From positions 64,001 through 128,000 of IMG/VR virus record IMGVR_UViG_3300045051_000909: a stretch of 64,000 nt of DNA, one strand, 5' to 3'. Source of the DNA: a virus. The notes beneath the pieces are model-generated. The model searched no databases, had not been told where the DNA came from, and saw only the letters and a program-made list of their open reading frames with translations. The position numbers were made by a program, and so were the translations under genes. Below are positions 11,476 through 22,212 of this stretch, one piece after another. How positions within the stretch are numbered: the first letter of the stretch is position 1; every line of letters begins with the position of its first letter.

Positions 11476-11549
11476 TGCCCCTGGAAGGATTTGAACCCTC
11501 AGCCTGCCGGATAGAAGCCGGTCGCTCTGTCCAATTGAGCTACAGGGGC
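11476..11549 (-). tRNA. tRNA-Arg(TCT)
   Basis: 7-bp acceptor GCCCCTG/CAGGGGC with discriminator A. Loop CTTCTAT gives anticodon TCT (AGA/AGG codons). The 27-43 pair is A-C. Confidence 0.88.
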
Positions 11550-11553
11550 TTTG

Positions 11554-11640
11554 CAGAGAGTCGAGGTCTTGATCCTCACACGCTTGTCGCGTGCCATCGG
11601 TTTAGCAAACCGCGCTGGGCGCCCGCCCAGTTGGCTCTCC
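11554..11640 (-). tRNA. tRNA-Ser(GCT)
   Basis: Class II tRNA with long variable arm; loop TTGCTAA gives GCT (AGC/AGT). Discriminator G, as expected for Ser. The D arm CTGGGC...GCCCAG forms 6 bp, longer than normal. Confidence 0.85.
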
Positions 11641-11644
11641 ATAG

Positions 11645-11729
11645 AGGAAGGCAGTGGTCTTGATCCACACGCCCTTGCGAGCGCGCTCCGCTTTCGAGGC
11701 GGGCCTGGTCCCTGACCAGTTTACCTTCC
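11645..11729 (-). tRNA. tRNA-Ser(CGA)
   Basis: Long variable arm; loop CTCGAAA gives CGA (TCG). The D arm is an extended CTGGTC/GACCAG stem. The discriminator reads T where G is expected for Ser, so charging may be altered. Confidence 0.78.
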
Positions 11730-11738
11730 GAATCTGAG

Positions 11739-11823
11739 CGGAGAACGGAGATCCCGACTCTCACAGACTTACGCCTGCGCACGCGCTTCCAACGCGGCCT
11801 GGTCCCTGACCAGTTCATTCTCC
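11739..11823 (-). tRNA. tRNA-Ser(GGA)
   Basis: Acceptor GGAGAAT/GTTCTCC, discriminator G, loop TTGGAAG with anticodon GGA (TCC/TCT). The D arm is the same extended stem as in the neighbouring Ser(CGA), so the two are probably duplicates. Confidence 0.85.
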
Positions 11824-11829
11824 AACGTG

Positions 11830-11917
11830 CAGAGGGCGGAGGACTTGAACCCCATGCCCCTTCCGGAGCACGATCTGCTTTCAAGGCAGCCTCGGTCGCC
11901 TAACCGATTCACCCTCT
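11830..11917 (-). tRNA. tRNA-Ser(TGA)
   Basis: Loop CTTGAAA gives TGA (TCA/TCG), discriminator G, long variable arm, D stem TCGGT/ACCGA. Completes a four-member Ser set. Its 5' end overlaps by 2 nt the stop codon of the protein gene upstream. Confidence 0.88.
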
Positions 11918-12473
11918 ATAGACCAATTTTCGCTAGCACTTCGTGAGCCTTCTCCTCAGAAGGATCACCCGCGCAGATCTGGAGTACCCGATGCGCCAGC
12001 TCATGAACGAGTGCTGAGTCGTCGAGGCGCAGATGCCAGCCCACAGTGATAAACGTGCCGTCTTGTTCCCCGGCGACACGGCGAAGCGACGTTATCTGGG
12101 TCCAGGTAGGTTCCCGAAACACCACCACACAACCCGCCAGTGCTTGTCTTGCCAGCGGATACGTCGGCTCAAGGTGGACGAGGAGCTCCTCAACGGTTGC
12201 ATCGAAGTCCTCGATCTTTACCGCGTACTGTTTGTCCGTCCAGCCTACCCAGAGACGGTGCGAGCTCTCAAACTTTAGGATCTTGGTTGTGCGACAGCGC
12301 TGTATAACCTGAACGATACTGACACCTATCCAGCCAGCGGCGGCTACCCAGGACACAAGCTGGGCCGGGGCTTCCTGTTGCGACACCATTGCCCATACCG
12401 CAGTTGCTAGGGCGAGTAGTGGAAACAGAACAAAAAAAAGAGCGTCGGTGAGGGTGAGCAGGCTCAGGCGCAC
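11916..12473 (-). CDS. membrane-anchored HExxH protein, 185 aa
   Basis: A GTG start at 12473 has AGGAG 6 nt upstream. Two N-terminal hydrophobic segments (about 8-30 and 38-58) anchor the protein. The C-terminal part carries VHELAHRV, an HExxH zinc-binding motif, followed by EEKAHE. It may be a small membrane-bound metallopeptidase, but no family is recognised. Its TAG stop uses bases of the adjacent tRNA-Ser(TGA). Confidence 0.6.
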   Translation of the reverse strand: MRLSLLTLTDALFFVLFPLLALATAVWAMVSQQEAPAQLVSWVAAAGWIGVSIVQVIQRCRTTKILKFESSHRLWVGWTDKQYAVKIEDFDATVEELLVHLEPTYPLARQALAGCVVVFREPTWTQITSLRRVAGEQDGTFITVGWHLRLDDSALVHELAHRVLQICAGDPSEEKAHEVLAKIGL

Positions 12474-12531
12474 AGGCGACTCCTAATCGGGATGCTCGCC
12501 CTCCTAGTATAGAGGGCGAGCGCCCCTGTAG

Positions 12532-13080
12532 TCACTTGTCCTGCACGAGCTCACCGTGCCAGTACTCAACATCGCGTAGGAACGCCTTCCAAGAGACCGG
12601 CATTCCGTTTTCATACCGCAGCGTAATGTTGAGGATGTTTGGTAGCCGCTTTGGCTGAATAGGCTCACGGAGGAGCTTCATCCCGGCCTCAGCGGGAGTG
12701 CTGTCCGCCTTCTTCTGGTTGCAAGGGATGCAGGCGACTACTACGTTCTGCCATGTCGTCTTGCCTCCCCGGCTCTTCGGCACGACGTGCTCGAAGGTGA
12801 AGTTGTGGCGCGGTACGTTTCGCCCGCAGTACTGACACTGGCCGTTGTCCCGGATCCAGATGTTGTCCCGGGAGAACCGTGCGGGGCGATCCTTCTTCCG
12901 CTTGCCTCGGATGTAGCGGACGATGGACGGTACCTTGATGGTCATGGTGACGGAGCTGACGGTACGATCTTCGTACTCCTCGACAATCTGCACCAGACCC
13001 TTGAACCAAAGTGATACGGCATGTTGCCAAGGGACCCGACGCACGGGTTCCCATTGGGCGCTAAGCACCAGCGTGTCCAT
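12532..13080 (-). CDS. HNH endonuclease
   Basis: The ATG at 13080 is preceded by AGGAGGACG. The 182-residue protein has an HNH core of the widespread bacterial/phage type: CQYCGRN, then FEHVVPKSRGGKTTWQN, then CIPCNQKKAD. The N-terminal third (SAQWEPVRRVPWQHAV) is typical of these proteins too. It sits between the Ser and Leu tRNA groups and is probably a free-standing homing or regulatory nuclease. Confidence 0.9.
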   Translation of the reverse strand: MDTLVLSAQWEPVRRVPWQHAVSLWFKGLVQIVEEYEDRTVSSVTMTIKVPSIVRYIRGKRKKDRPARFSRDNIWIRDNGQCQYCGRNVPRHNFTFEHVVPKSRGGKTTWQNVVVACIPCNQKKADSTPAEAGMKLLREPIQPKRLPNILNITLRYENGMPVSWKAFLRDVEYWHGELVQDK

Positions 13081-13109
13081 CGGGCGTCCTCCTGTTGTAA
13101 GTTTAGTTG

Positions 13110-13191
13110 TGCCCCCGGGAGGATTCGAACCTCCACGCCTTTCGGCGGCGGGGTTTAAGGCCGCTGCGTCTACCTATTCCACCACGAGGGC
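13110..13191 (-). tRNA. tRNA-Leu(TAA)
   Basis: Class II; acceptor GCCCTCG/CGGGGGC, discriminator A, anticodon TAA (TTA). A C-C mismatch closes the anticodon loop. First of five consecutive Leu tRNAs. Confidence 0.88.
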
Positions 13192-13194
13192 GAG

Positions 13195-13277
13195 TGTCCC
13201 GGGCGGGATTCGAACCCGCAAGCCTTTCGGCAGTGGTTTTTGAGACCACCCTGTATACCAGTTCCAAGCACCAGGAC
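13195..13277 (-). tRNA. tRNA-Leu(CAA)
   Basis: Stem GTGGT/ACCAC with loop CTCAAAA; anticodon CAA (TTG). Discriminator A. Confidence 0.92.
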
Positions 13278-13280
13278 GTG

Positions 13281-13363
13281 TGGCTAAGGAGGGACTCGAA
13301 CCCTCAAGGTCTTGCGACCACCGGCTTCTAAGACCGGCGTGTATGCCATTCCACCACTCAGCC
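13281..13363 (-). tRNA. tRNA-Leu(TAG)
   Basis: Loop CTTAGAA; anticodon TAG (CTA and wobble). Acceptor GGCTGAG/CTTAGCC. Confidence 0.92.
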
Positions 13364-13373
13364 GTATCAAATG

Positions 13374-13459
13374 TGCTCGAGAGAGGAGTCGAACCTCCAC
13401 GGCCTCGCGGCCACAGGACTCTCAATCCTGCGTGTCTACCAAAGTTCCACCACTCGAGC
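13374..13459 (-). tRNA. tRNA-Leu(GAG)
   Basis: Stem CAGGA/TCCTG with loop TTGAGAG; anticodon GAG (CTC/CTT). Discriminator A. Confidence 0.92.
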
Positions 13460-13464
13460 AAGAG

Positions 13465-13548
13465 TGCTTCGGAGAGGATTTGAACCTCCACGGGTTTTAC
13501 CCCACCGGCTTCTGAGACCGGCGCGAATACCAGTTCCGCCACCGAAGC
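13465..13548 (-). tRNA. tRNA-Leu(CAG)
   Basis: Loop CTCAGAA; anticodon CAG (CTG). Completes a set reading all six Leu codons. Confidence 0.92.
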
Positions 13549-13554
13549 ATACAG

Positions 13555-13626
13555 TGCCCAGAGCAGGGATCGAACCTGCGACAGTCGGCTTGTAAGGCCG
13601 CTACTCTACCGCTGAGTTATCCGGGC
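13555..13626 (-). tRNA. tRNA-Val(TAC)
   Basis: Loop CTTACAA; anticodon TAC (GTA/GTG). Acceptor GCCCGGA/TCTGGGC. A small ORF from the upstream spacer ends at a TAA within its 5' part. Confidence 0.9.
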
Positions 13627-13633
13627 AATACGT

Positions 13634-13756
13634 TCTCGTCTGGGGCTGCATTAGCTTCACCAGCCTTGGGAGCCAGATCCGCGAACACCCCAGCCTTCAG
13701 TTGTTCCCAAGAACTTCAGGCCTCCTAAGGGGAGTGGGCTTTATACCCAGACGAGA
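13634..13756 (-). ncRNA. candidate structured RNA of about 123 nt between tRNA-Met and tRNA-Val
   Basis: Perfect 11-bp arms (13634-13644 and 13746-13756) close the element. Inside are GCCT..AGGC around GTTC-TTGG-GAAC, and CTCC/GGAG beside a strong Shine-Dalgarno AGGAGG (complement of 13721-13726). A 23-codon ORF starting at GTG 13688 with codon-like composition (VFADLAPKAGEANAAP) ends in tRNA-Val at 13617. The element could be a processed small RNA, a leader with a peptide, or both; I recognise no class. Confidence 0.45.
13739..13748 (-). promoter_or_regulatory. candidate -10 element GGGTATAAAG
   Basis: The minus strand reads GACTCTCGTCTGGGTATAAAG, similar to the element before the AAA+ gene. 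It lies in one arm of the structured element at 13634-13756, so it may instead be part of that RNA. Confidence 0.3.
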
Positions 13757-13757
13757 G

Positions 13758-13830
13758 TCGCGACGGGTGGACTCGAACCACCGCATGACGGCTTATGAGG
13801 CCGTTGCCTTTCCATCTTGGCTACGTCGCG
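13758..13830 (-). tRNA. tRNA-Met(CAT), elongator type
   Basis: Acceptor CGCGACG/CGTCGCG with a paired C1-G72, discriminator A, stem ACGGC/GCCGT, loop CTCATAA; anticodon CAT. The paired first base makes it elongator-like; an Ile tRNA needing lysidine is the alternative. Confidence 0.85.
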
Positions 13831-13833
13831 TTA

Positions 13834-13943
13834 TAGCGGGGGCAGGAATTGAACCTGCGTAGACCGGCGTATGAGACCAGTGAGTCTTGCCTAGGCTGGG
13901 CCTTCTGAGGGCTTCTGCGTCGGCTCCACTACTCTACCCCGCA
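13834..13943 (-). tRNA. initiator-like tRNA-Met(CAT) with enlarged D loop
   Basis: The 2-7 pairs GCGGGG/CCCCGC are the same as in E. coli tRNA-fMet, and positions 1-72 are an unpaired T-T, an initiator-type trait. Anticodon loop CTCATAC, discriminator A. The D stem GAGT/ACTC encloses about 45 nt instead of about 8, an insertion of roughly 37 nt with internal pairing (GCC/GGC). Total length is 110 nt. The GGG/CCC anticodon-stem signature of initiators is only partly kept. Confidence 0.7.
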
Positions 13944-14011
13944 AGCCCCAGGCGGGAATCGAACCCGCCGGCTGAACCTTAGGACGGTCCGCCAGATCCA
14001 TCGTCTGGGGC
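13944..14011 (-). tRNA. tRNA-Arg(CCT), short D arm
   Basis: Acceptor GCCCCAG/CTGGGGC, loop GTCCTAA, anticodon CCT (AGG). Only 68 nt long, because the D arm is degenerate. It abuts the initiator-like tRNA with no spacer. Confidence 0.75.
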
Positions 14012-14015
14012 GACT

Positions 14016-14089
14016 TGCTCTCGGCCGGAGTCGAACCGGCAACCTCACGCTTCGGAGGCGTGCGACCTATCCAGTTGATCGACGAGAGC
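14016..14089 (-). tRNA. tRNA-Arg(CCG)
   Basis: Stem CACGC/GCGTG with loop CTCCGAA; anticodon CCG (CGG). Discriminator A. Confidence 0.92.
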
Positions 14090-14093
14090 GTAG

Positions 14094-14166
14094 CGTCCTC
14101 GGAAGGAGTCGAACCTTCATTCCGGGTTTCGTAGACCCGTGTGATATCCAGTTTCACTACGAGGAC
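14094..14166 (-). tRNA. tRNA-Arg(ACG)
   Basis: Stem CGGGT/ACCCG with loop CTACGAA; anticodon ACG, which after A-to-I editing by host TadA reads CGT, CGC and CGA. Discriminator G. Confidence 0.9.
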
Positions 14167-14169
14167 GTA

Positions 14170-14243
<74 letters not shown>

Positions 14244-14251
14244 ACTGTGAT

Positions 14252-14303
14252 CAAAAAAACCGGCGGTGTAGGGCGACCCCGACGGAGCGGGGCCGCCCTA
14301 CGT
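14252..14303 (-). terminator. terminator after the AAA+ gene
   Basis: A strong GC stem (GTAGGGC..CCCCG with CGGGG..GCCCTAC, one mismatch) is followed, after a short GC stretch, by seven Ts on the minus strand (14252-14258). It separates the AAA+ gene from the tRNA-Thr end of the array. Confidence 0.65.
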
Positions 14304-14314
14304 ACCACCACCAA

Positions 14315-15832
14315 CTATGCGCGAGCCGGAACGACGCCGTTCTTCTTCTGCGTGGTGGACAGGACCACCGTGACCTCGCCGTTCTCGTTGTCGTGCTCGA
14401 CGGCCGAGACGCGGTACTGCTCCTGCTTCTCCGCCTTCCCGTTCATGAGGTCGATGTGCGTCTGCATCCCGTCGATGGTGACCAGGATGTCCTGCTCGTT
14501 GATGCTCAGGCCGCTCTGCACCGCCGTGCCCTTGGGCAGGCGCCCGATGGCCGCGAGCTTGGCGCGCTCCACGACCTCCCGGATGATCGCCGGCCGCTGC
14601 CCGGCCAGACGCTTGCCGACCGCGCTCAAGTCGGTGCCCGGGACCATCAGGTCCCGTGCGTACAGCGTCACCAGCCGTTCGACGGCCTTGGCATCGGGCG
14701 GCCGCATCACGATGACCGCGTCGAGCCGACCCGGCCGCAGCATCGCCGGATTGATCTTCTCGGCGTGGTTGCTCGTGAGCACCACCATGATCTCCTTGCC
14801 CTTGCTGAGGATGCCGTCCAGGGTGTTCAGGATGTCGTTGACCGCCTCGTCGCGGTCCTCGTCGTCACCCCGAGTGACCTGGTCGATGTCCTCGGAGAAG
14901 ATGCAGGCCGGCTGGTACTGCATGGCGAAGGTGATCGCGTGCTCGAGGTGCTTGACCGACTTGAGGTAGATGAAGGTCCAGTCCTTCGCCTCGCACTTCT
15001 TCGCCAGGATGTTGGCCGACATGGTCTTGCCCACGCCGTAGCTGCCGGCGAGGAGCACGCCGCGCTTCAGCGGAATGCCGAGCTGGCGGCACTCCTCCGT
15101 CCGCTCCACCGGGGTGAAGAGGTTGGTCTGCATCAGCGCCTCGACCTCGCCGGGCAGGACGAGCTCGCGGTCGTCGATGCCGTGGAGGTTCATGAACTTC
15201 GGGGCGACGTCCTCGGGGCTCGTCTCGCGGGGGTTGAAGTCGTCCGGGAAGGCGACGGTGATCGCCTTGCCCTTGTAGATCGACTCCCGGTCGACGATCT
15301 TGCGAGCGAGCTCGCAGATCTCGGTCACGAGGACGCGGTGCTTGTGCTTGATCTCGCCCGCGACGGCGAAGAAGTAGCCGTCCTTGGTGACCTCGATGGA
15401 GGAGGACAGGTAGCCCTCCATGCCCGGGATCTGGAAGCGGCCCCAGGGCACCTGGACGAACTTGTTGTACGCGACCTCGATGCTCAGCATGTGCGGGGGG
15501 CGCGAACCCCAGAAGCCGGGGGTCGGCACCTGGTCGACCCAGCCGAACTTCTCGCGCAGGGCCTTGACGAAGGCGACGGCGCCGTCGAACGGGTGAGTCT
15601 TGATGACCTCGTGAACCGCGACGACCTTCTCCTCCTCCTCGCGGCGGCGGCGGATCCAGACCTCCGCGTCGGCGAGGCTCATGCCCTCGGGCATGATGAT
15701 CTTCTGGACCGGCGCCCGCTCGAGGCCGATGACGTCGAGCTTCTGGGGGTTGTTCTCCTCCATGCCCAGCTTCTTCGCCATCTTGTCGAGCTGCTTCTGC
15801 ATCTCCGCCATGTTCTGATTCTGATCAGCCAT
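14315..15832 (-). CDS. AAA+ ATPase, 505 aa
   Basis: A coiled-coil N terminus (residues 1-25), a middle domain, and a C-terminal AAA+ module: Walker A GSYGVGKT (263-270), Walker B CIFSEDID (310-317), sensor LTSN (352-355) and arginine finger RPGRLD (366-371). This is the classic single-AAA layout of the FtsH/SpoVK/proteasome-ATPase type. The gene has its own promoter, leader hairpin and terminator inside the tRNA region, and its third codon positions are strongly GC-biased, which suggests high expression. The partner or substrate is unknown; no peptidase domain is fused. Confidence 0.85.
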   Translation of the reverse strand: MADQNQNMAEMQKQLDKMAKKLGMEENNPQKLDVIGLERAPVQKIIMPEGMSLADAEVWIRRRREEEEKVVAVHEVIKTHPFDGAVAFVKALREKFGWVDQVPTPGFWGSRPPHMLSIEVAYNKFVQVPWGRFQIPGMEGYLSSSIEVTKDGYFFAVAGEIKHKHRVLVTEICELARKIVDRESIYKGKAITVAFPDDFNPRETSPEDVAPKFMNLHGIDDRELVLPGEVEALMQTNLFTPVERTEECRQLGIPLKRGVLLAGSYGVGKTMSANILAKKCEAKDWTFIYLKSVKHLEHAITFAMQYQPACIFSEDIDQVTRGDDEDRDEAVNDILNTLDGILSKGKEIMVVLTSNHAEKINPAMLRPGRLDAVIVMRPPDAKAVERLVTLYARDLMVPGTDLSAVGKRLAGQRPAIIREVVERAKLAAIGRLPKGTAVQSGLSINEQDILVTIDGMQTHIDLMNGKAEKQEQYRVSAVEHDNENGEVTVVLSTTQKKNGVVPARA

Positions 15833-15874
15833 TTGGTGTTACCTCTTGGGTAGTGGTGGTGGTGATTCCCGTGC

Positions 15875-15894
15875 GTGAGGCACAGTTGCCTCAC
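15875..15894 (-). other. 5' leader hairpin of the AAA+ mRNA
   Basis: GTGAGGCA and TGCCTCAC pair perfectly around a 4-nt loop. The element starts close to the predicted transcription start, so it would cap the mRNA 5' end. Confidence 0.55.
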
Positions 15895-15902
15895 AGCGAC
15901 GG

Positions 15903-15912
15903 CTTATACCCG
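15903..15912 (-). promoter_or_regulatory. -10 element of the AAA+ promoter
   Basis: The minus strand reads CGGGTATAAGCC about 70 nt before the AAA+ start and just after a terminator. TATAAG is 15908-15903. Similar elements precede other minus-strand genes here. Confidence 0.55.
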
Positions 15913-15944
15913 AGAGTCATGAATTTTTTGAAAGCCTGGGAGCC

Positions 15945-15999
15945 AAAAAAAGCCGGGTTATAGGTGGCCCGGAGAGAGATAGCCTTCTCTCCCCGGGCC
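15945..15999 (-). terminator. terminator upstream of the AAA+ gene
   Basis: A 14-bp stem with one mismatch (15966-15979 with 15986-15999) is followed on the minus strand by CCGGC and seven Ts (15951-15945). It ends the transcript carrying the structured RNA of 16.0-16.4 kb. Confidence 0.75.
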
Positions 16000-16447
16000 G
16001 GTCATTTGGCTTTCTCGCCGACCGTGGTGATCTATGGGCTCCGTTTAAGTCACAGGGTCAGTCTTAGATAGGACGCTCTAGCTTTAAGCTACCGGGCCAT
16101 AAGATATTTGGCGGCCCGGGAGGGACTTCAACCCCCATCTTCCCGTCATAGCTCCTGTAACGTTCGACTAGATCATACGGTTGTTAGTCTGAGCTTGGAG
16201 TGTAACAGCTTGAACTTGAATCTCAGTGCCTCGCTCCTAACTTACGACCTTGCCTCTCTGTGGGCTACCCGGGCGTACTAAGCAGCTACCGAATGGCTTA
16301 CACCGTTTATGGCGGTGCCCAGGTGCACGCTGGGAATTCGGTCGCTGCTTACTATGCCCGGGGGTGGTTACGAGCCACCGCTGGGGGGTCTAGGTTAGGG
16401 CTAAGCATCAGCTATCAGTCTCAGCTTGCACTCCGTAGAAACTGTTC
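16000..16447 (-). ncRNA. large structured RNA of unknown class
   Basis: No protein gene lies between the terminator and the stop at 16448. The minus transcript can form a long helix (16336-16362 with 16268-16294, about 23 pairs) topped by two hairpins (16318-16322/16330-16334 and 16301-16305/16313-16317), a neighbouring hairpin 16363-16367/16375-16379, and a tRNA-like part near 16070-16140. Position beside tRNAs in a phage recalls ornate large RNAs such as ROOL or GOLLD, but I cannot assign it to a class. Confidence 0.6.
16071..16140 (-). other. tRNA-like element in permuted order (3' half before 5' half)
   Basis: In minus-strand order: T arm GGGGG-TTGAAGT-CCCTC, CCGGGCC (16119-16113), G, CCA, ten nucleotides, GGCCCGG (16098-16092), TA, then a D-arm-like GCTT...GAGC (16089-16075). 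The two 7-nt acceptor strands pair perfectly. Positions 27-30 (TCCT) can pair with GGGA before a 4-nt variable region. The T loop has G instead of C56. It may be a permuted tRNA or a tRNA-mimicking part of the larger RNA. Confidence 0.45.
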
Positions 16448-17185
16448 CTACTTGTTGAACAAGTAGTCGAGGATCGGGGAGGTGTTGAGCTCCACCGCCT
16501 CATGCATGTTCGCTTCCTCGCGCGACGTCTTCACCGCGCGCTGGAGCTTCTCGACCCGCTCGAAGAGCTCCTTGACCTGCTGGGCCGGCATCGCGCCGGA
16601 GAACTTGACCGTGGTCCAGTAGCCGTCGAGGACGTCGGTCGTCACCTTGACTGCCTGAGCCGGATGCTCCTTGGTCGGCTGGACGATGACCTTGAAGTCC
16701 TCGACCTTCTTCTGGCGGATCGTCTCGACGGGCTCCGTGGCGTGGCAGTTCTGGTTCGAATCCCAGTGCCAGGTCTCGGTCGGATCGAGCGTCGGCAGCT
16801 TGCCGATGAAGGTCTTGAGATCGACCAGCTGCTTCTCGAGCCAGAGCAGATGCGTGGCCGGGACGCCAGTGACGAGCACCTGACCATCGACGATGACGTC
16901 GGCCTTGGCGACGCAGTTGGTCGAGTCCTTCATGCCGACGATGTTGAAGAGCTCGCTGAGGTTGCGCTTGACCTCGGTGATCACCTCGTGCGCTCGCAGC
17001 TGCACGACCTGGCGCTCGGACGGGAGCTTGTCACCCTCTTCCATCTTCGCGCGGTAGGTCTTGGCGAGACCTGCGAGCAGCGCAGGTTTGGCCATGTTCT
17101 GGTAGGCGTCGGTGAAGACCTTGTTCGCCTGGGTCTTGATGCTCTTCTCGACAGCGACAACTTGGTTCAACTTCTTGAGCTTCAT
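16448..17185 (-). CDS. conserved-looking hypothetical protein, 245 aa
   Basis: ATG at 17185 follows GGGAGACAAG. The protein is mainly helical and charged, starts MKLKKLNQVVAVEKS and has a middle segment with WHWDSNQNCH. I do not recognise the family. It shares with the AAA+ and the 20.5-kb coiled-coil genes a GTATRAG-type promoter and GC-rich third positions, so it is probably highly expressed. It may be functionally linked to them, but only position and expression suggest this. Confidence 0.65.
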   Translation of the reverse strand: MKLKKLNQVVAVEKSIKTQANKVFTDAYQNMAKPALLAGLAKTYRAKMEEGDKLPSERQVVQLRAHEVITEVKRNLSELFNIVGMKDSTNCVAKADVIVDGQVLVTGVPATHLLWLEKQLVDLKTFIGKLPTLDPTETWHWDSNQNCHATEPVETIRQKKVEDFKVIVQPTKEHPAQAVKVTTDVLDGYWTTVKFSGAMPAQQVKELFERVEKLQRAVKTSREEANMHEAVELNTSPILDYLFNK

Positions 17186-17235
17186 CTTGTCTCCCGTGGT
17201 GGACTGCGGACCCTTAGTGAGTGCCGTCAGTACTC

Positions 17236-17245
17236 CTCATACCAC
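17236..17245 (-). promoter_or_regulatory. extended -10 promoter element
   Basis: The minus strand reads CGTGGTATGAGG, an extended -10 (TGGTATGAG) about 50 nt upstream of the ATG at 17185. Confidence 0.5.
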
Positions 17246-17265
17246 GGGCAACCAGATTTTTATGA

Positions 17266-17337
17266 TGCGCGAGGCAGGACTTGAACCTGCAACTTTCGGC
17301 GTGTCACACCGACGCTCTACCTTTGAACTACTCGCGC
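17266..17337 (-). tRNA. tRNA-Val(GAC)
   Basis: Stem TCGGT/GCCGA with loop GTGACAC; anticodon GAC (GTC/GTT). Discriminator A. Confidence 0.9.
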
Positions 17338-17340
17338 GTG

Positions 17341-17403
<63 letters not shown>

Positions 17404-17413
<10 letters not shown>

Positions 17414-17655
17414 TTGAACTCATTGAATCTGTCCAGCGTTGCTACCTTTGCCGGATCCTCGATGTACTGCGGGCAGCCGCCATACTTCACGACGCTGAGC
17501 TGCCGCTTGGCGTCACTGTGCTTGAGATGTTCGTAATTGTGCAGCGAGCAAGTGCCCCACTCGTTGTTGGGGAATTTGCTATAGCGGCACAACGCGCAGC
17601 ACTTGAAGATTCGATACTCGATCTTCGCTAGCTTCTGTCTCTTGTTCTCATCCAT
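17404..17655 (-). CDS. Cys-rich small protein, 83 aa
   Basis: I start at the ATG at 17655 (MDENKRQKLAK); the frame upstream is only read-through of tRNA genes. Cysteines in CCALC, GTCSLH and GGCPQ suggest a metal-binding fold. Its TAG stop lies inside the 5' part of tRNA-Ala(CGC), so gene and tRNA overlap by 10 nt. Function unknown. Confidence 0.6.
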
Positions 17656-17659
17656 GGTG

Positions 17660-17732
17660 TGGACCCGAGCGGGATCGAACCGCTGACCTCCTGAATGCCA
17701 TTCAGGCGCTCTCCCAACTGAGCTACGAGCCC
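17660..17732 (-). tRNA. tRNA-Ala(GGC)
   Basis: Stem CCTGA/TCAGG with loop ATGGCAT; anticodon GGC (GCC/GCT). G3-U70 present. Confidence 0.93.
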
Positions 17733-17735
17733 GTG

Positions 17736-17808
17736 TGGAGCCAGCCGGAATCGAACCGGCGACATCCAGCTTGCAAAGCTGGCGTTCTCCCAACTGAACT
17801 ATGGCCCC
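17736..17808 (-). tRNA. tRNA-Ala(TGC)
   Basis: Stem CCAGC/GCTGG with loop TTTGCAA; anticodon TGC (GCA/GCG). G3-U70 present. It directly follows a terminator on this strand. Confidence 0.93.
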
Positions 17809-17860
17809 AAAAAACCCTTTCTCTCCAGCGGGACGCTGATCGCGTTCATCAAGAAAGGGG
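17809..17860 (-). terminator. terminator downstream of rtcB
   Basis: CCCTTTCT pairs with AGAAAGGG around a loop that itself holds a GC-rich hairpin, followed by six Ts on the minus strand (17814-17809). A second hairpin, CCGGGGGT/ACCCCCGG, lies nearer the rtcB stop (about 17890-17945). Confidence 0.65.
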
Positions 17861-17962
17861 ACTGCGCAATATGCGTCCCGTAATAAAGGCCGGGGGTTCG
17901 AGTGGTGAAAGGAAAAGGCCACTCATCTTCACGGACACCCCCGGTGGTCCGACCACCACAAG

Positions 17963-19234
17963 CTACTCACGTACCCGATGCTTCATCTCTCGTTCGAGTC
18001 GGCGCTGGTTCTTCCACGCCTTCTCGCTTTCCTTACGGTCGCGCCTCATCTTCTCGTCGTGCCCCTTGACTGTCAAGAGAGAGTGAAGCTCGAACATCGG
18101 CGTAACAAGGTCCGCTTGGTTCTGCATGACGACCTCGATGTCCTTGTAAGCCATCGCGATCTCGTCAAGCACGCCCTTGCCGATGTGGCACTCGACGCCT
18201 TTGGTGGACTCGCGGAGGTCGTCGAGCGTGAACGTCTTGTTGGCCTTGGACCGGCTCATCTTACGTCCAGCGCCATGGCTGGCGGACATCAGGCTCTCGG
18301 GATTGCCGAGGCCTTGCACGATGAAGCTCTTGCGCCCCATGGCCCCAGGGATGATGCCCCACTGACCTTCCTTGGCTTCGATGGCGCCCTTGCGTGCGAC
18401 GATCAGTTTCTCGCCATCGATAACTTCCTCGGTGGCGTAGTTGTGATGGCAGCTGACCCGCATATCGACGGGAGCGTAATCGAGACCCTCAGCGTGCAGA
18501 GCCGACAGCAGAAGGTCCATCATCAGTTGCCGGTTCAGCCGCGCGTACTCCTGCGCGGTCTGCATGTCACGCCAGTAATCGGCGAAGTCAGGGGACTCTC
18601 GCGGAAACACGGCGATGCGCTTGTCCGGAAGATCCCGGTTGATTGGGTGTTCCTCGGCCAGGTGCGCATAGCTATCGGCGACCTCCTTGCCGAAGTTGCG
18701 TGAACCCGAGTGCAGCATGAGCCAGATGCGCCCTTCTTGATCCTCGCACACCTCGATGAAGTGATTCCCCGAACCGAGGGTTCCCATTTGACGCTTGGCA
18801 TTCTCGAGGGAACAGCGAGACTGCCTGGTCTGCTTGACGCGCTCCCACAGCTCCTCGAACTCAGGAGCCTTGGTGCCCGGATGCGCCGTCTCATGCGCAC
18901 AGCCGGTACCATTGGGGATGAACTCCTCGATGCGTAGGCGCAGACCCTTGAGGTCCTTCGGCAACATCGCGGGTGTGAGTGAGGTGCGCAGAGCATCCAT
19001 CCCGCATCCGATGTCAACACCGACGATGCCCGGGGCAACGGCGTCCTTCAACGCCACGACGCTCCCGACGGGGACGCCGAACCCCGCGTGCACGTCCGGC
19101 ATGGCGCGCACGTAGCGTGCGCTCGGCAGATTGGCGGTGTTACGAAGTTGCGTTAGCGCCTCGGACTCCACCTCATGGAGCGGCGCCCACAGCAGTACAG
19201 GCACTTGCTGCCCGTCCATCCGTGAGATCGACAT
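17963..19234 (-). CDS. rtcB: RtcB-type RNA ligase
   Basis: The 423-residue protein has the RtcB signature motifs in order: MPDVHAGFGVPVG, GVDIGCGM, LGSGNHFIEV, HSGSRNFG, CHHNYA and ASHGAGRKMSR (with the His that is guanylylated). RtcB joins 2',3'-cyclic-phosphate or 3'-phosphate ends to 5'-OH RNA using GTP and Mn. It can therefore seal tRNAs cut by anticodon nucleases, or join split or permuted tRNAs. SD GGGGAAGG precedes the ATG. A terminator-like hairpin lies only about 20 nt upstream of the start. Confidence 0.95.
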   Translation of the reverse strand: MSISRMDGQQVPVLLWAPLHEVESEALTQLRNTANLPSARYVRAMPDVHAGFGVPVGSVVALKDAVAPGIVGVDIGCGMDALRTSLTPAMLPKDLKGLRLRIEEFIPNGTGCAHETAHPGTKAPEFEELWERVKQTRQSRCSLENAKRQMGTLGSGNHFIEVCEDQEGRIWLMLHSGSRNFGKEVADSYAHLAEEHPINRDLPDKRIAVFPRESPDFADYWRDMQTAQEYARLNRQLMMDLLLSALHAEGLDYAPVDMRVSCHHNYATEEVIDGEKLIVARKGAIEAKEGQWGIIPGAMGRKSFIVQGLGNPESLMSASHGAGRKMSRSKANKTFTLDDLRESTKGVECHIGKGVLDEIAMAYKDIEVVMQNQADLVTPMFELHSLLTVKGHDEKMRRDRKESEKAWKNQRRLEREMKHRVRE

Positions 19235-19251
19235 GACCTTCCCCTGAATCG

Positions 19252-19286
19252 AAAATAAAGGGGAGCGGCGCTGGTGCGCCGTCCCC
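19252..19286 (-). terminator. terminator-like hairpin just before rtcB
   Basis: GGGGgaCGGCGC-ACCA-GCGCCGctCCCC (complement of 19260-19286) is followed by TTTATTTT (19259-19252). Read-through is needed for transcription from upstream to reach rtcB, so it may be an attenuator. Confidence 0.75.
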
Positions 19287-19558
19287 CGGGGGCGACCTGG
19301 TTAGGTCACCCTCCACCACCCATGCTGACGGGCACGGGACCGTTTGAAAGTGGAGCTGCGAAAAGCTGAAGAGCCGGATAGTACGCAGTAGGTAGTATGC
19401 ACTTGAGACCCGAGAATGTCGGTTCTGAATAATGCCCGCTTTGATGGCCGTTGGTCATGCCGGCGAGCTTTTACACGTCTACCGCTCTCTAGGCCCTTCC
19501 GGTAGCGGACGGGGTCCGCTGTCATTAGCTTTCAACTTCTCGCAGTCTGAAAGCGACT
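19287..19558 (-). ncRNA. structured leader or intergenic RNA upstream of rtcB
   Basis: This stretch has no convincing gene; a 74-codon ORF here has no clear start signal. On the minus strand it can form GCTTTCA/TGAAAGC, GCGGAC-CCC-GTCCGC (about 19505-19519), CTACCG/CGGTAG (about 19480-19506) and GGTGACCT/AGGTCGCC (19291-19310) hairpins, before the terminator-like hairpin. It could be a regulatory leader or a separate small RNA. Confidence 0.45.
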
Positions 19559-20065
19559 TTAGAGGTCGCCGTCAGCAAGATCGGACACGCCGACCTTCTC
19601 CGTGTTTCCTTCGGCGATGAGACCCTTCAGCGTGGCAAGGATTTTCTCTGCCTCGATGATCTGGGCCATCACCTGATCGTTGGTCATCACCGGCTTTGCG
19701 TGCTCCTCGGTGACATCTGCGCGCTTGATGCGGATCGTCTCATCCGGCTCGAGGTCCATGCGCTGATACATGCTCCAGCGACCTGCGTTCCGTCCCGCGA
19801 CGCCCTGCAACCGGACGGCTTCAGCCAAGGAGATCTTCTGTCCCTGGAAGTCTACCTTGACCAGCAGGTTGTACTGGGTCTGGGCTGCCTGGAGGCGGAC
19901 GATGCGGCGCTCGAGCTCGAACACCTGCGCTGCAAGCTTGGTCGGATGCTCCTTCTCCTGATCAGCGAAGCGATACATCGCCTTGTTGAACTTCCGCTCG
20001 ATGTTCTGCAACGTCAGCGAGTGCTTCTTCAGCGCCTCGCGCAACTGGTATCCTGTGACTTCCAT
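19559..20065 (-). CDS. hypothetical helical protein, 168 aa
   Basis: The protein starts MEVTGYQLREALKKHSLTL after an AAGGGGAAG ribosome site. It is rich in Lys/Glu helices and probably forms a coiled coil (residues 10-65 and 125-150). No family is recognised. The gene lies between tmRNA and the rtcB leader. Confidence 0.65.
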   Translation of the reverse strand: MEVTGYQLREALKKHSLTLQNIERKFNKAMYRFADQEKEHPTKLAAQVFELERRIVRLQAAQTQYNLLVKVDFQGQKISLAEAVRLQGVAGRNAGRWSMYQRMDLEPDETIRIKRADVTEEHAKPVMTNDQVMAQIIEAEKILATLKGLIAEGNTEKVGVSDLADGDL

Positions 20066-20092
20066 GTGGTCTTCCCCTTGTGAATGTTTCAG

Positions 20093-20431
20093 TGGAGCTG
20101 CCGGGAATCGAACCCGGGTCCGAAGATCAATCCAGAACAGCTTCTACGAGCGTAGCCACTACCGGTGGCGCGGTACTACAGTGGAGCCCCGTTCGCAGAC
20201 GAGTGCGGGCTGCCTCTCTTCCCCGTCATGTGACCCTGTTGGTTTACCCCTGCGGCTACTAGGGTGATCTTGCCTCGGGGTGCCCACGCGGCTTTTTAGG
20301 CCGCCATCAGCTGGGCGCGCTCAACGTTGTCGTTGGCGTTTGTGTCTTTGGTCGGCTTTTAACGTGGCCTGCTGACCAACCACGGCTCGCAACCATTCTC
20401 TCTTTCACTTCGTCGAAACCAGTTCAGCCCC
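20093..20431 (-). ncRNA. ssrA: tmRNA (one-piece)
   Basis: The 5' end GGGGCTG AACTGGTTTCGACG and 3' end with T arm CCGGGTTCGATTCCCGG and CAGCTCC are the tRNA-like half of a tmRNA. The acceptor has the G3-U70 pair for alanine. The tag frame at 20296-20337 encodes ANDNVERAQLMAA followed by TAA. Downstream are GC hairpins that can form the usual pseudoknots. It would rescue stalled ribosomes and mark products for proteolysis. CCA is not encoded. Confidence 0.95.
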
Positions 20432-20526
20432 GAAACCACGGGGTGGAGCCTCGCGGCTCCGCAGTCGCTGTGCGTCCGCCTGTGGTCAATTCCACAGAGT
20501 ACCCGTGGGTGCTTCAACAACTACGG

Positions 20527-21552
20527 CTAGGCGCGCTTCCCGTTGCCCATGCCGTTGTTCTGCTGCGAGGCCGTCTGCATGGCCACCGCGAGCGCCTGCT
20601 GGCCGGACGCCGACTCGAGGGCCTTGCTGGCGATGGTCTCGGCGCGCATGTTGGCGGCGTCGATCTGGGTGCGCAGGGAGTCGATGAGCTTCTGCTGCTC
20701 GTTGATGGTCTTGGTCAGCGAGGCGATCTCGTTGCTCGAGACCTTCAGCGCCACCTCGGCGTCCTTCTTGATCATCTCGATCTGGTGGTTGAAGTCCTTG
20801 GTCAGCCGGTTGGTCGTGATGGCCTCGACGGTCTTCTCGGCCTTGGCGATGACCGACGGCATCTCGTCGACGGTCTTCTTCAGCGCGGCGAACTCCTGCT
20901 CCTTCGCCGCCATCACCGTCTCCCGCTCCTTCATGTTCTTGTTGAACGCATCGGCGCGGTCCCGCTCTTGGGCCTGCTGAACCCGCATCTGCTCCTTCCA
21001 GGCGTCCTCCGCCTGGCGGCGCTGCTGCCCGAGCTGGTACGCGTACTCCGCCTCCTCGCGGGTGCGCTCCTGGCGCTCTTCCTCATCGAGCTCGGTGATG
21101 CGCTTCTTGAGGGCGGCCAACTGCTGGTCCAGCTCCTCGCGACGGGCGAGGAAGGTGGTCTCGAGCTCCTTCTGCTTGGTGTCGTACTCGGCGACGAGGG
21201 TCTCGATGCTGGCCTTGGCGATGTCGATCTTGTACAGCCGCTCGAGCTCCGCCTTCTCGAGCTTCACCGCCTCGCGGGTCTCCTCGAGCTCCTTGACGGT
21301 GTTGGCGAACTGCTCGCTCACGCCTGCGAGGGTCTTCTGGAGGGTGAGGCCGACGTCGGTGAGGTTCTTCACCGCCTTCTCGACGGTGACCTCGTTGGTG
21401 GCGTTGCGGATCTCGGTCTCGCGCTGCGCCTGGAGCGCGCGCTCGGTGGGCGTGGCGGTCTTGACCGTCATCGTCTCAGCGCGAACGTCCTCGAAGCTCT
21501 GCTTCACGTCGGCCTTGGTCCGGGTGTTGCGATTGCTGCGCTTGCTTGCCAT
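20527..21552 (-). CDS. long coiled-coil protein, 341 aa
   Basis: I start at 21552 (MASKRSNRN), where CGGAG lies 8 nt upstream, not at the longer ORF start. Almost the whole length is charged heptad-like helix with many Glu, Lys, Gln and Ala, so an extended coiled coil is expected. The C terminus is Gln/Asn/Gly-rich. Third positions are strongly GC-biased and a consensus-like promoter lies just upstream, so it is probably abundant. The role is unknown; scaffold or filament-like functions are possible. Confidence 0.7.
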   Translation of the reverse strand: MASKRSNRNTRTKADVKQSFEDVRAETMTVKTATPTERALQAQRETEIRNATNEVTVEKAVKNLTDVGLTLQKTLAGVSEQFANTVKELEETREAVKLEKAELERLYKIDIAKASIETLVAEYDTKQKELETTFLARREELDQQLAALKKRITELDEEERQERTREEAEYAYQLGQQRRQAEDAWKEQMRVQQAQERDRADAFNKNMKERETVMAAKEQEFAALKKTVDEMPSVIAKAEKTVEAITTNRLTKDFNHQIEMIKKDAEVALKVSSNEIASLTKTINEQQKLIDSLRTQIDAANMRAETIASKALESASGQQALAVAMQTASQQNNGMGNGKRA

Positions 21553-21605
21553 GTCGTTGCTCCGAAAATGTGGGTGGTGTCCTACACCGTCGAACCACAA
21601 TGGTC

Positions 21606-22037
21606 TCAGGTGCTGGTGCTTATACCACGACCCTCTGACAATTTATGTTCATGCGGGCAACGACCGTCAGGCGAATGTGCACGGCCGCAATTGCAGTTAT
21701 AGCAGAGCAACCGATATTCAGGAGGGAACCCTTGGCTACGAATCTGTTGGTATACGCGCGCTGAGCTGCCCAGTGAACGCCGATGCGTGGCACCGTTATT
21801 ATTTATGTGATCGATGGTCAAGAATCTCGGTTCTAACTCGCCACAACATGCGCACTTTCCGCCGTATGCCCGCAGCACCTCGTCGCGAATCTGAGTACGG
21901 TATTGGCGTTGATACGTGGCTTCCTTAGCTAAAAACGAGGCATCTACTTGTTTACGCCGTTTACGTAACTCTCTCTGATACTTCGCGCTTTTGCTAACCG
22001 GAACAGAGTTGCTACGAAACGCTAAACCCACGCGCAT
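21606..22037 (-). CDS. HNH endonuclease
   Basis: The 143-residue protein has an HNH core: CACCGE, then LTIDHINNNG, then LCYNCNCGR. This is the common small phage HNH type. A Lys/Arg-rich N terminus may bind DNA. The gene starts near tRNA-Phe and contains the promoter of the coiled-coil gene at its 3' end. A start at the following in-frame codons is possible. Confidence 0.85.
   Translation of the reverse strand: MRVGLAFRSNSVPVSKSAKYQRELRKRRKQVDASFLAKEATYQRQYRTQIRDEVLRAYGGKCACCGELEPRFLTIDHINNNGATHRRSLGSSARVYQQIRSQGFPPEYRLLCYNCNCGRAHSPDGRCPHEHKLSEGRGISTST
21619..21628 (-). promoter_or_regulatory. extended -10 promoter element
   Basis: The minus strand reads CGTGGTATAAGC, an extended -10 (TGGTATAAG) about 65 nt before the ATG at 21552. 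Confidence 0.6.
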
Positions 22038-22062
22038 GCGATCACTCGTAGTGTTGAGAGAA

Positions 22063-22135
22063 TGCCAGCTCCCGGAATCGAACCAGGCTCGTCCGCTCTT
22101 CAGGCGGCTGCGATCACCAGATGTGCCTAACTGGC
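22063..22135 (-). tRNA. tRNA-Phe(GAA)
   Basis: Loop CTGAAGA; anticodon GAA (TTC/TTT). Acceptor GCCAGTT/AGCTGGC, discriminator A. Confidence 0.88.
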
Positions 22136-22140
22136 AAGAG

Positions 22141-22212
22141 CGCTCCGTACGGGACTCGAACCCGTCTCATCGCATAGACAGTGCGACAGCCTCACCCGAT
22201 GCTTAACGGAGC
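22141..22212 (-). tRNA. tRNA-Asp(GTC)
   Basis: Stem TCGCA/TGCGA with loop CTGTCTA; anticodon GTC, discriminator G as expected for Asp. Position 37 is T, which is unusual. Confidence 0.88.

What the first reader, a model, noticed from the sequence alone, without database searches (positions are those of the whole stretch)
16000..16447. Large ornate non-coding RNA in the tRNA region
A protein-free 450-nt stretch bounded by a gene stop and a strong terminator can form a long interrupted helix with two hairpins on top, several satellite hairpins and a tRNA-like part. Phages carry large structured RNAs such as ROOL and GOLLD near tRNAs, some holding tRNA-like parts, but I see no match I can name.
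Basis: partly seen in the sequence, partly recalled or inferred. Interest (0 to 1): 0.7.

Follow-up and report, generated by a model that had tools for sequence, protein, structure and literature searches.

The report
Paired tRNA-mimic RNA with protein partner
The phage stretch encodes a previously unnamed structured RNA carrying two tRNA look-alike modules; the same RNA occurs in many bacteria and phages, essentially only where one uncharacterised protein (DUF7873) also occurs, which points to an undescribed RNA-protein machine.

Summary
The RNA is real. It lies on the minus strand (about 16440 to 15966), immediately downstream of a DUF7873 gene (16448-17185). It matches no Rfam family at the curated threshold. 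It is one member of a widespread family of about 370 nt. Each member has two circularly permuted tRNA-like modules (T-arm, acceptor stem, end loop, D-arm) on separate stems, followed by a terminal GC hairpin. In a tree-based covariation test 31 column pairs were significant. Thirty lie in the predicted structure; the 31st is a 99%-paired contact joining the "NCC" acceptor end of module 2 to the "GGN" loop of the terminal hairpin. The RNA lies near DUF7873 in 74 of 80 bacterial and 76 of 80 viral loci. In genome samples a full-length RNA occurs in 6 of 6 and 15 of 18 DUF7873 genomes, and in 0 of 192 and 0 of 283 others. In about eight Chloroflexota genomes the two genes are unlinked, so the RNA works in trans. 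The modules resemble the Y RNA YrlA, but Ro60 is absent from this record, two complete phages and 18 of 38 bacteria. Function is inferred.

The parts
15966..16440 (-). Whole structured RNA (5' end about 16440, 3' end 15966)
   Evidence: Profile built without the window finds 16274-15966 at E 2e-22 plus 16443-16355; CM R1 82.8 bits at 16181-16014 (window is one of 52 training sequences)
16448..17185 (-). DUF7873 gene (245 aa), proposed protein partner
   Evidence: PF25283 E 3e-88; genome-wide co-occurrence with the RNA
16429..16434 (-). P1 5' strand GGAGUG, pairs with CACUCC 16202-16197 (family consensus GGAGCG/CGCUCC, a compensated change here)
16197..16202 (-). P1 3' strand CACUCC
16363..16379 (-). 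Module 1 T-arm
   Evidence: covarying pairs; coordinates
16356..16362 (-). Module 1 acceptor stem, first strand CCCGGGC
16275..16355 (-).
   Evidence: only this stretch is missed by the leave-one-out profile
16268..16274 (-). Module 1 acceptor stem, second strand GCCCGGG
16252..16268 (-). Module 1 D-arm (degenerate in this copy)
16169..16174 (-). Basal helix of half 2, first strand GAUCUA, complementary to UAGAUC 16034-16029
   Evidence: sequence; equivalent helix has 5 of 6 pairs with changes on both sides
16154..16161 (-). Stem below module 2, first strand GUUACAGG, pairs with CCUGUGAC 16056-16049
   Evidence: equivalent helix: 7 of 7 pairs with double changes
16120..16136 (-). Module 2 T-arm; position 56 is G (16129) instead of the family's C
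16113..16119 (-). Module 2 acceptor stem, first strand CCGGGCC, pairs with GGCCCGG 16098-16092
   Evidence: 7 of 7 pairs with double changes
16110..16112 (-). Module 2 'NCC' acceptor end (GCC), pairs with GGC 15984-15982
   Evidence: columns 253-364: E below 1/60, 99% paired; tally
16075..16092 (-). Module 2 second acceptor G, U8/A9 and D-arm; position 19 is C (16081), complementing G56
16042..16049 (-). Conserved CUUAAACG bulge motif
   Evidence: nearly invariant columns in A3
15966..15999 (-). Terminal GC hairpin with the conserved GGNYA loop

Best explanation
The RNA is a free-standing, trans-acting structured RNA made of two tRNA-mimic modules, and it forms a ribonucleoprotein with the DUF7873 protein. 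Shown: the conserved fold, the two modules, the NCC:GGN contact, and near-exclusive co-occurrence with DUF7873 even when the two genes lie megabases apart. Inferred: the stems and the CUUAAACG bulge bind DUF7873, while the tRNA elbow and acceptor surfaces dock one or two tRNA-binding enzymes (PNPase, tRNA nucleases or tRNA-modifying enzymes). DUF7873 is thereby tethered to, or redirects, that enzyme, much as YrlA tethers Ro60 to PNPase. The NCC:GGN contact would keep the acceptor-like end capped so that the RNA is neither charged nor processed like a tRNA. Confidence in the DUF7873 partnership is about 0.85; confidence in the tether mechanism is about 0.35.
For: 31 significant covarying column pairs, 30 of them in the consensus structure; 96% of cells paired against 35-46% when partners are slid, 27 of 31 pairs with double changes. 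RNA found near DUF7873 in 74/80 bacterial and 76/80 viral loci. Actinomycete sample: full-length RNA in 6/6 DUF7873 genomes and 0/192 others (Fisher 1e-11). Chloroflexota sample: 15/18 against 0/283 (Fisher 1e-22). In about eight Chloroflexota genomes RNA and gene are unlinked (1.8 Mb apart on one contig in G005), which excludes a purely cis role. No other neighbouring gene is conserved. Promoter-like hexamers sit just upstream of the RNA in chromosomal copies (mean score 5.58 against 5.20, sd of the shuffled mean 0.07). YrlA precedent: tRNA-like domain binds PNPase, stem binds Rsr (PMC8394870).
Against: No expression, binding or phenotype data. Fisher values ignore shared ancestry. DUF7873 has no recognisable fold match or catalytic motif and the family is not strongly basic (median pI 6.5; window protein 8.4), so RNA binding is unproven. 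Three of 18 DUF7873 genomes in the Chloroflexota sample had no strong RNA match (one has a weak full-length match at 48 bits). Some Streptomyces copies lack module 1, so two modules are not obligatory.
Confidence: 0.62

Rival explanations
1. It is a divergent Y RNA (YrlA class) that serves host Ro60/Rsr, and DUF7873 is only an accessory.
For: Sub-threshold YrlA matches over the modules in many members (25-41 bits). In Nocardia G019 even the YrlA beside Ro60 scores only 51 of 69 bits, so the Rfam threshold is strict. Hosts of phages may supply Ro60; TROVE is present in 20 of 38 DUF7873 bacteria.
Against: No TROVE in the phage record, in L004's record or in two complete phages, nor in 18 of 38 DUF7873 bacteria. 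The RNA tracks DUF7873, not Ro60. A separate YrlA lies beside TROVE in the same Nocardia genome.
Confidence: 0.12
2. It is a decoy or competitive inhibitor: the tRNA mimics protect phage or cell tRNAs by occupying tRNA-cleaving enzymes, and DUF7873 stabilises the RNA.
For: Phage copies often sit in tRNA arrays; this phage also has RtcB and a tmRNA. Competitive inhibition of an anticodon nuclease has been suggested for YrlA (PMC7790460).
Against: The modules have no anticodon loop, the usual target. Chromosomal copies are stand-alone and widespread, with no link to tRNA arrays or defence genes.
Confidence: 0.2
3. It is an RNA-protein toxin-antitoxin pair, with DUF7873 the toxin and the RNA its antitoxin, or the reverse.
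For: Compact two-gene unit that moves between phages and chromosomes.
Against: The two genes are unlinked in several Chloroflexota, which is unusual for such pairs. The RNA is far larger and more structured than known RNA antitoxins; no PADLOC or NCBIfam match for DUF7873.
Confidence: 0.08
4. It is a cis-acting 3' UTR or terminator element of the DUF7873 mRNA.
For: Usually lies a median of 39 nt downstream of the gene in viral loci.
Against: In Herpetosiphon and related genomes the full RNA stands alone between unrelated genes, up to 1.8 Mb from DUF7873.
Confidence: 0.04
5. It is a permuted tRNA or tmRNA-like translational RNA that is cut and charged.
For: Module topology equals a circularly permuted tRNA; weak permuted and beta-tmRNA matches in some loci.
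Against: No anticodon arm and no tag reading frame; the acceptor end is base-paired intramolecularly in 80 of 81 sequences; this phage and GodonK have a separate tmRNA.
Confidence: 0.05

Closest known systems
YrlA bacterial Y RNA (RF02553)
   Same: T-arm, acceptor-like stem and D-arm in permuted order on a stem; tRNA mimicry; bulged basal stem; found in bacteria and phages
   Different: Two modules in about 370 nt rather than one in 90-150 nt; terminal hairpin with NCC:GGN contact; partner is DUF7873, not Ro60; below the Rfam threshold
ROOL and GOLLD RNAs
   Same: Large ornate RNAs of unknown function, often near phage tRNA genes (PMC12286853)
   Different: No Rfam match; different structure; protein-associated and common outside tRNA arrays
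T-box riboswitch (NCCA:UGGN contact)
   Same: Pairing of an acceptor-type NCC end with a GGN loop
   Different: Contact is intramolecular; no tRNA sensing element; not a leader of aminoacyl-tRNA genes. Comparison from general knowledge
tmRNA (RF00023, RF04321)
   Same: tRNA-like domain in a larger RNA; permuted forms share the module order
   Different: No tag reading frame; a separate tmRNA exists in the same phage (20092-20431)

Membership tests
YrlA (RF02553) | Rfam gathering score of 69 bits | tested here: not met
   25.3 bits in the window, at most 40.8 in relatives; a Ro60-adjacent YrlA also fails at 51 bits, so this alone is weak
YrlA (RF02553) | tRNA-like domain of T-, acceptor- and D-arms | tested here: met
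   Covarying arms in two modules
YrlA (RF02553) | Encoded near Ro60/Rsr (TROVE) | tested here: not met
   No TROVE in own record or two complete phages; absent from 18 of 38 bacterial genomes with DUF7873
YrlA (RF02553) | Basal stem binds Ro60 | not testable with these tools
   Needs a binding assay
ROOL / GOLLD / HEARO / OLE | Rfam covariance match | tested here: not met
   No match at gathering or with E up to 10
tmRNA | Rfam match with tag reading frame | tested here: not met
   No match over this region; the phage tmRNA is at 20092-20431
tRNA | ARAGORN or Rfam tRNA with anticodon arm | tested here: not met
   No tRNA called between 14243 and 17266
T-box riboswitch | Rfam covariance match | tested here: not met
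   Not among matches

The most novel reading that the evidence does not exclude
An undescribed ribonucleoprotein machine, conserved across at least Actinomycetota, Chloroflexota, myxobacteria, cyanobacteria and their phages, in which a DUF7873 protein is paired in trans with an RNA that presents two tRNA mimics side by side and caps one of them with its own 3' hairpin. It would be a second, Ro60-independent lineage of tRNA-mimic RNPs in bacteria.
Probability: 0.55. Interest if true: 0.9.

Novelty: new variant of a known kind. Interest (0 to 1): 0.8.

Why it matters
Bacterial tRNA-mimic RNAs are known almost only as Ro60 partners. A second family with its own obligate, uncharacterised protein partner, found in many bacteria and phages, gives both an unknown RNA and a domain of unknown function (DUF7873) a direct, testable biological assignment, and raises the question of which tRNA enzyme needs two mimics presented together.

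Tried and rejected
DNA similarity to phage records: none. Pattern scan of viral contigs with the single window protein: none confirmed; the alignment query was needed. Folding energy did not decide the strand. Rfam E-value matches to miRNA, snoRNA and HCV families were judged chance. DUF7873 model (pLDDT 93.8): no confident fold match by Foldseek PDB or viral, and VIA Z of 6.9 or less, mostly helical proteins; a missing match does not show a new fold. PDB sequence search: only E 0.05 matches. Conserved neighbours beyond DUF7873: none. Bacterial tRNA arrays: only isolated tRNAs. Literature: no paper in the held library names DUF7873, and none found describes this RNA; the primary Y RNA papers were not held. 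Partial R1 matches covering only the module are mostly neighbouring tRNA pairs or YrlA and were not counted as family members. MAFFT misplaces module 1 of the window because of its insert; half-1 covariation was therefore recomputed without it.

Full report
The window is bases 64001-128000 of a 194,266-base virus record. Genes and the 39 tRNAs and one tmRNA in the region lie on the minus strand. The finding abuts the stop codon of a 245-aa gene at 16448-17185 whose product matches Pfam DUF7873 at E 3e-88. The next gene downstream is an AAA ATPase (14315-15832).

Check of the observation. The stretch 15940-16447 folds better than 100 of 100 shuffles on both strands, so energy alone does not give the strand. 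Rfam gives no match at the curated thresholds. At a permissive threshold the best match is YrlA, minus strand 16161-16046, 25.3 bits against a cut-off of 69. Sub-threshold YrlA matches of 29-38 bits also lie just downstream of DUF7873 homologues in Arthrobacter, Gordonia, Klebsiella and Rhizobium phages, and of 27-41 bits in bacterial chromosomes. That fixed the strand and led to the family.

The family. An alignment of DUF7873 recovered 434 viral relatives and more than 560 bacterial ones, the best 80 of each being kept. A profile of 12 seed RNAs, including the window, found the RNA near the gene in 74 of 80 bacterial and 76 of 80 viral loci, two of the viral matches being weak. A profile built without the window finds the window RNA at 16274-15966 with E 2e-22 and, weakly, 16443-16355.

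Structure. In an 81-sequence alignment made without structural information, RNAalifold gives 77 pairs. A test of the R-scape type, with null alignments evolved on the FastTree tree, gives 31 pairs with E below 0.05. Thirty belong to the predicted structure. They fall in the T-arm and acceptor stem of module 1; in the T-arm, acceptor stem, D-arm, supporting stem and basal stem of module 2; in P1; and in the terminal hairpin. On the 52-sequence alignment of half 2, 96.1% of cells pair, against 35-46% when partners are slid by 1-3 columns, and 27 of 31 pairs have changes on both sides. P1 rests on a single significant pair in each test.

The extra contact. The thirty-first pair joins the first base after the acceptor stem of module 2 to the third base of the terminal hairpin's GGNYA loop. 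It is G-C 37, U-A 25, U-G 13, A-U 3, G-U 2 and C-C 1. The next two positions pair in 80 and 78 of 81. The permuted tRNA's NCC end is thus paired to a GGN loop of the same molecule. In the window this is GCC 16112-16110 with GGC 15984-15982.

A local sign of selection in this copy. Module 2 has G instead of C at T-loop position 56 (16129) and C instead of G at D-loop position 19 (16081), which would keep the tRNA elbow pair 19-56. P1 is GGAGUG/CACUCC where the family has GGAGCG/CGCUCC. These readings are from the sequence.

Partnership. In 198 genomes drawn evenly from the phylum of G019, the full-length RNA (over 60 bits) occurs in exactly the six genomes with DUF7873; G019, the centre, is one of them. 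In 301 genomes from the phylum of G005 the RNA occurs in 15 genomes, all among the 18 with DUF7873. In about eight of these 15 the RNA is on another contig or far away, for example at 1.17 Mb against 3.01 Mb in Herpetosiphon aurantiacus. There it is an intact two-module gene between unrelated genes. A purely cis role is therefore excluded, and a functional link in trans is the natural reading. Fisher values (1e-11 and 1e-22) ignore shared ancestry.

Ro60. TROVE is absent from this record, from L004's record and from the complete genomes of Racecar and GodonK. It occurs in 20 of 38 DUF7873 bacteria. In Nocardia G019 a separate YrlA lies beside TROVE on contig C57 while the DUF7873 RNA is on C25. 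The YrlA beside Ro60 itself reaches only 51 bits, so the Rfam cut-off is not a sharp test.

DUF7873. The AlphaFold model is confident (pLDDT 93.8, pTM 0.78): long helices and long beta hairpins, without a confident structural match. No family library other than Pfam names it. No paper in the held library mentions it.

Mechanism. Shown: fold, modules, tertiary contact, co-occurrence. Inferred: an RNP. The closest precedent is YrlA, whose stem holds Rsr and whose tRNA-like domain binds PNPase (PMC8394870). By analogy DUF7873 would sit on the stems and the modules would dock tRNA-binding enzymes. A decoy for tRNA-cleaving enzymes is the strongest rival; a comparable role was suggested for YrlA (PMC7790460). 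Neither is tested.

Verdict. A real, strongly conserved RNA family, not in Rfam 15, related in module design to Y RNAs but with a different partner and architecture. The window copy is a divergent member with an ornate private insert. The literature search covered only an open-licence library, so prior description elsewhere cannot be excluded.

Noticed in passing
window 17963-19234 (-): RtcB RNA ligase gene within the tRNA region; in some bacteria rtcB is in one operon with Ro60 and Y RNAs, but here no Ro60 is present.
   Followed up: partly
window 20092-20431 (-): Phage tmRNA with tag ANDNVERAQLMAA.
   Followed up: no
window 11476-24751 (-): 39 tRNA genes covering most amino acids.
   Followed up: no
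window 14315-15832 (-): AAA ATPase with a weak PADLOC IetA match; relatives at about 44% identity in Enterobacteria and Pseudomonas phages.
   Followed up: no
L130, L149, L125, L167: Streptomyces and similar copies in which module 1 is missing while module 2 and the terminal hairpin remain.
   Followed up: partly
L173:5180-5476 (-): Herpetosiphon RNA standing alone 1.8 Mb from DUF7873, with a promoter-like TTGCCC-17-TACAAT just upstream.
   Followed up: partly
L014:189-408 (+): Sub-threshold group I intron match (44.7 of 50 bits) in a viral contig that carries DUF7873.
   Followed up: no
L002:6824-6890 (+): Racecar module 1 has ACCA directly after the acceptor stem, like an encoded tRNA 3' end inside the loop.
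   Followed up: no
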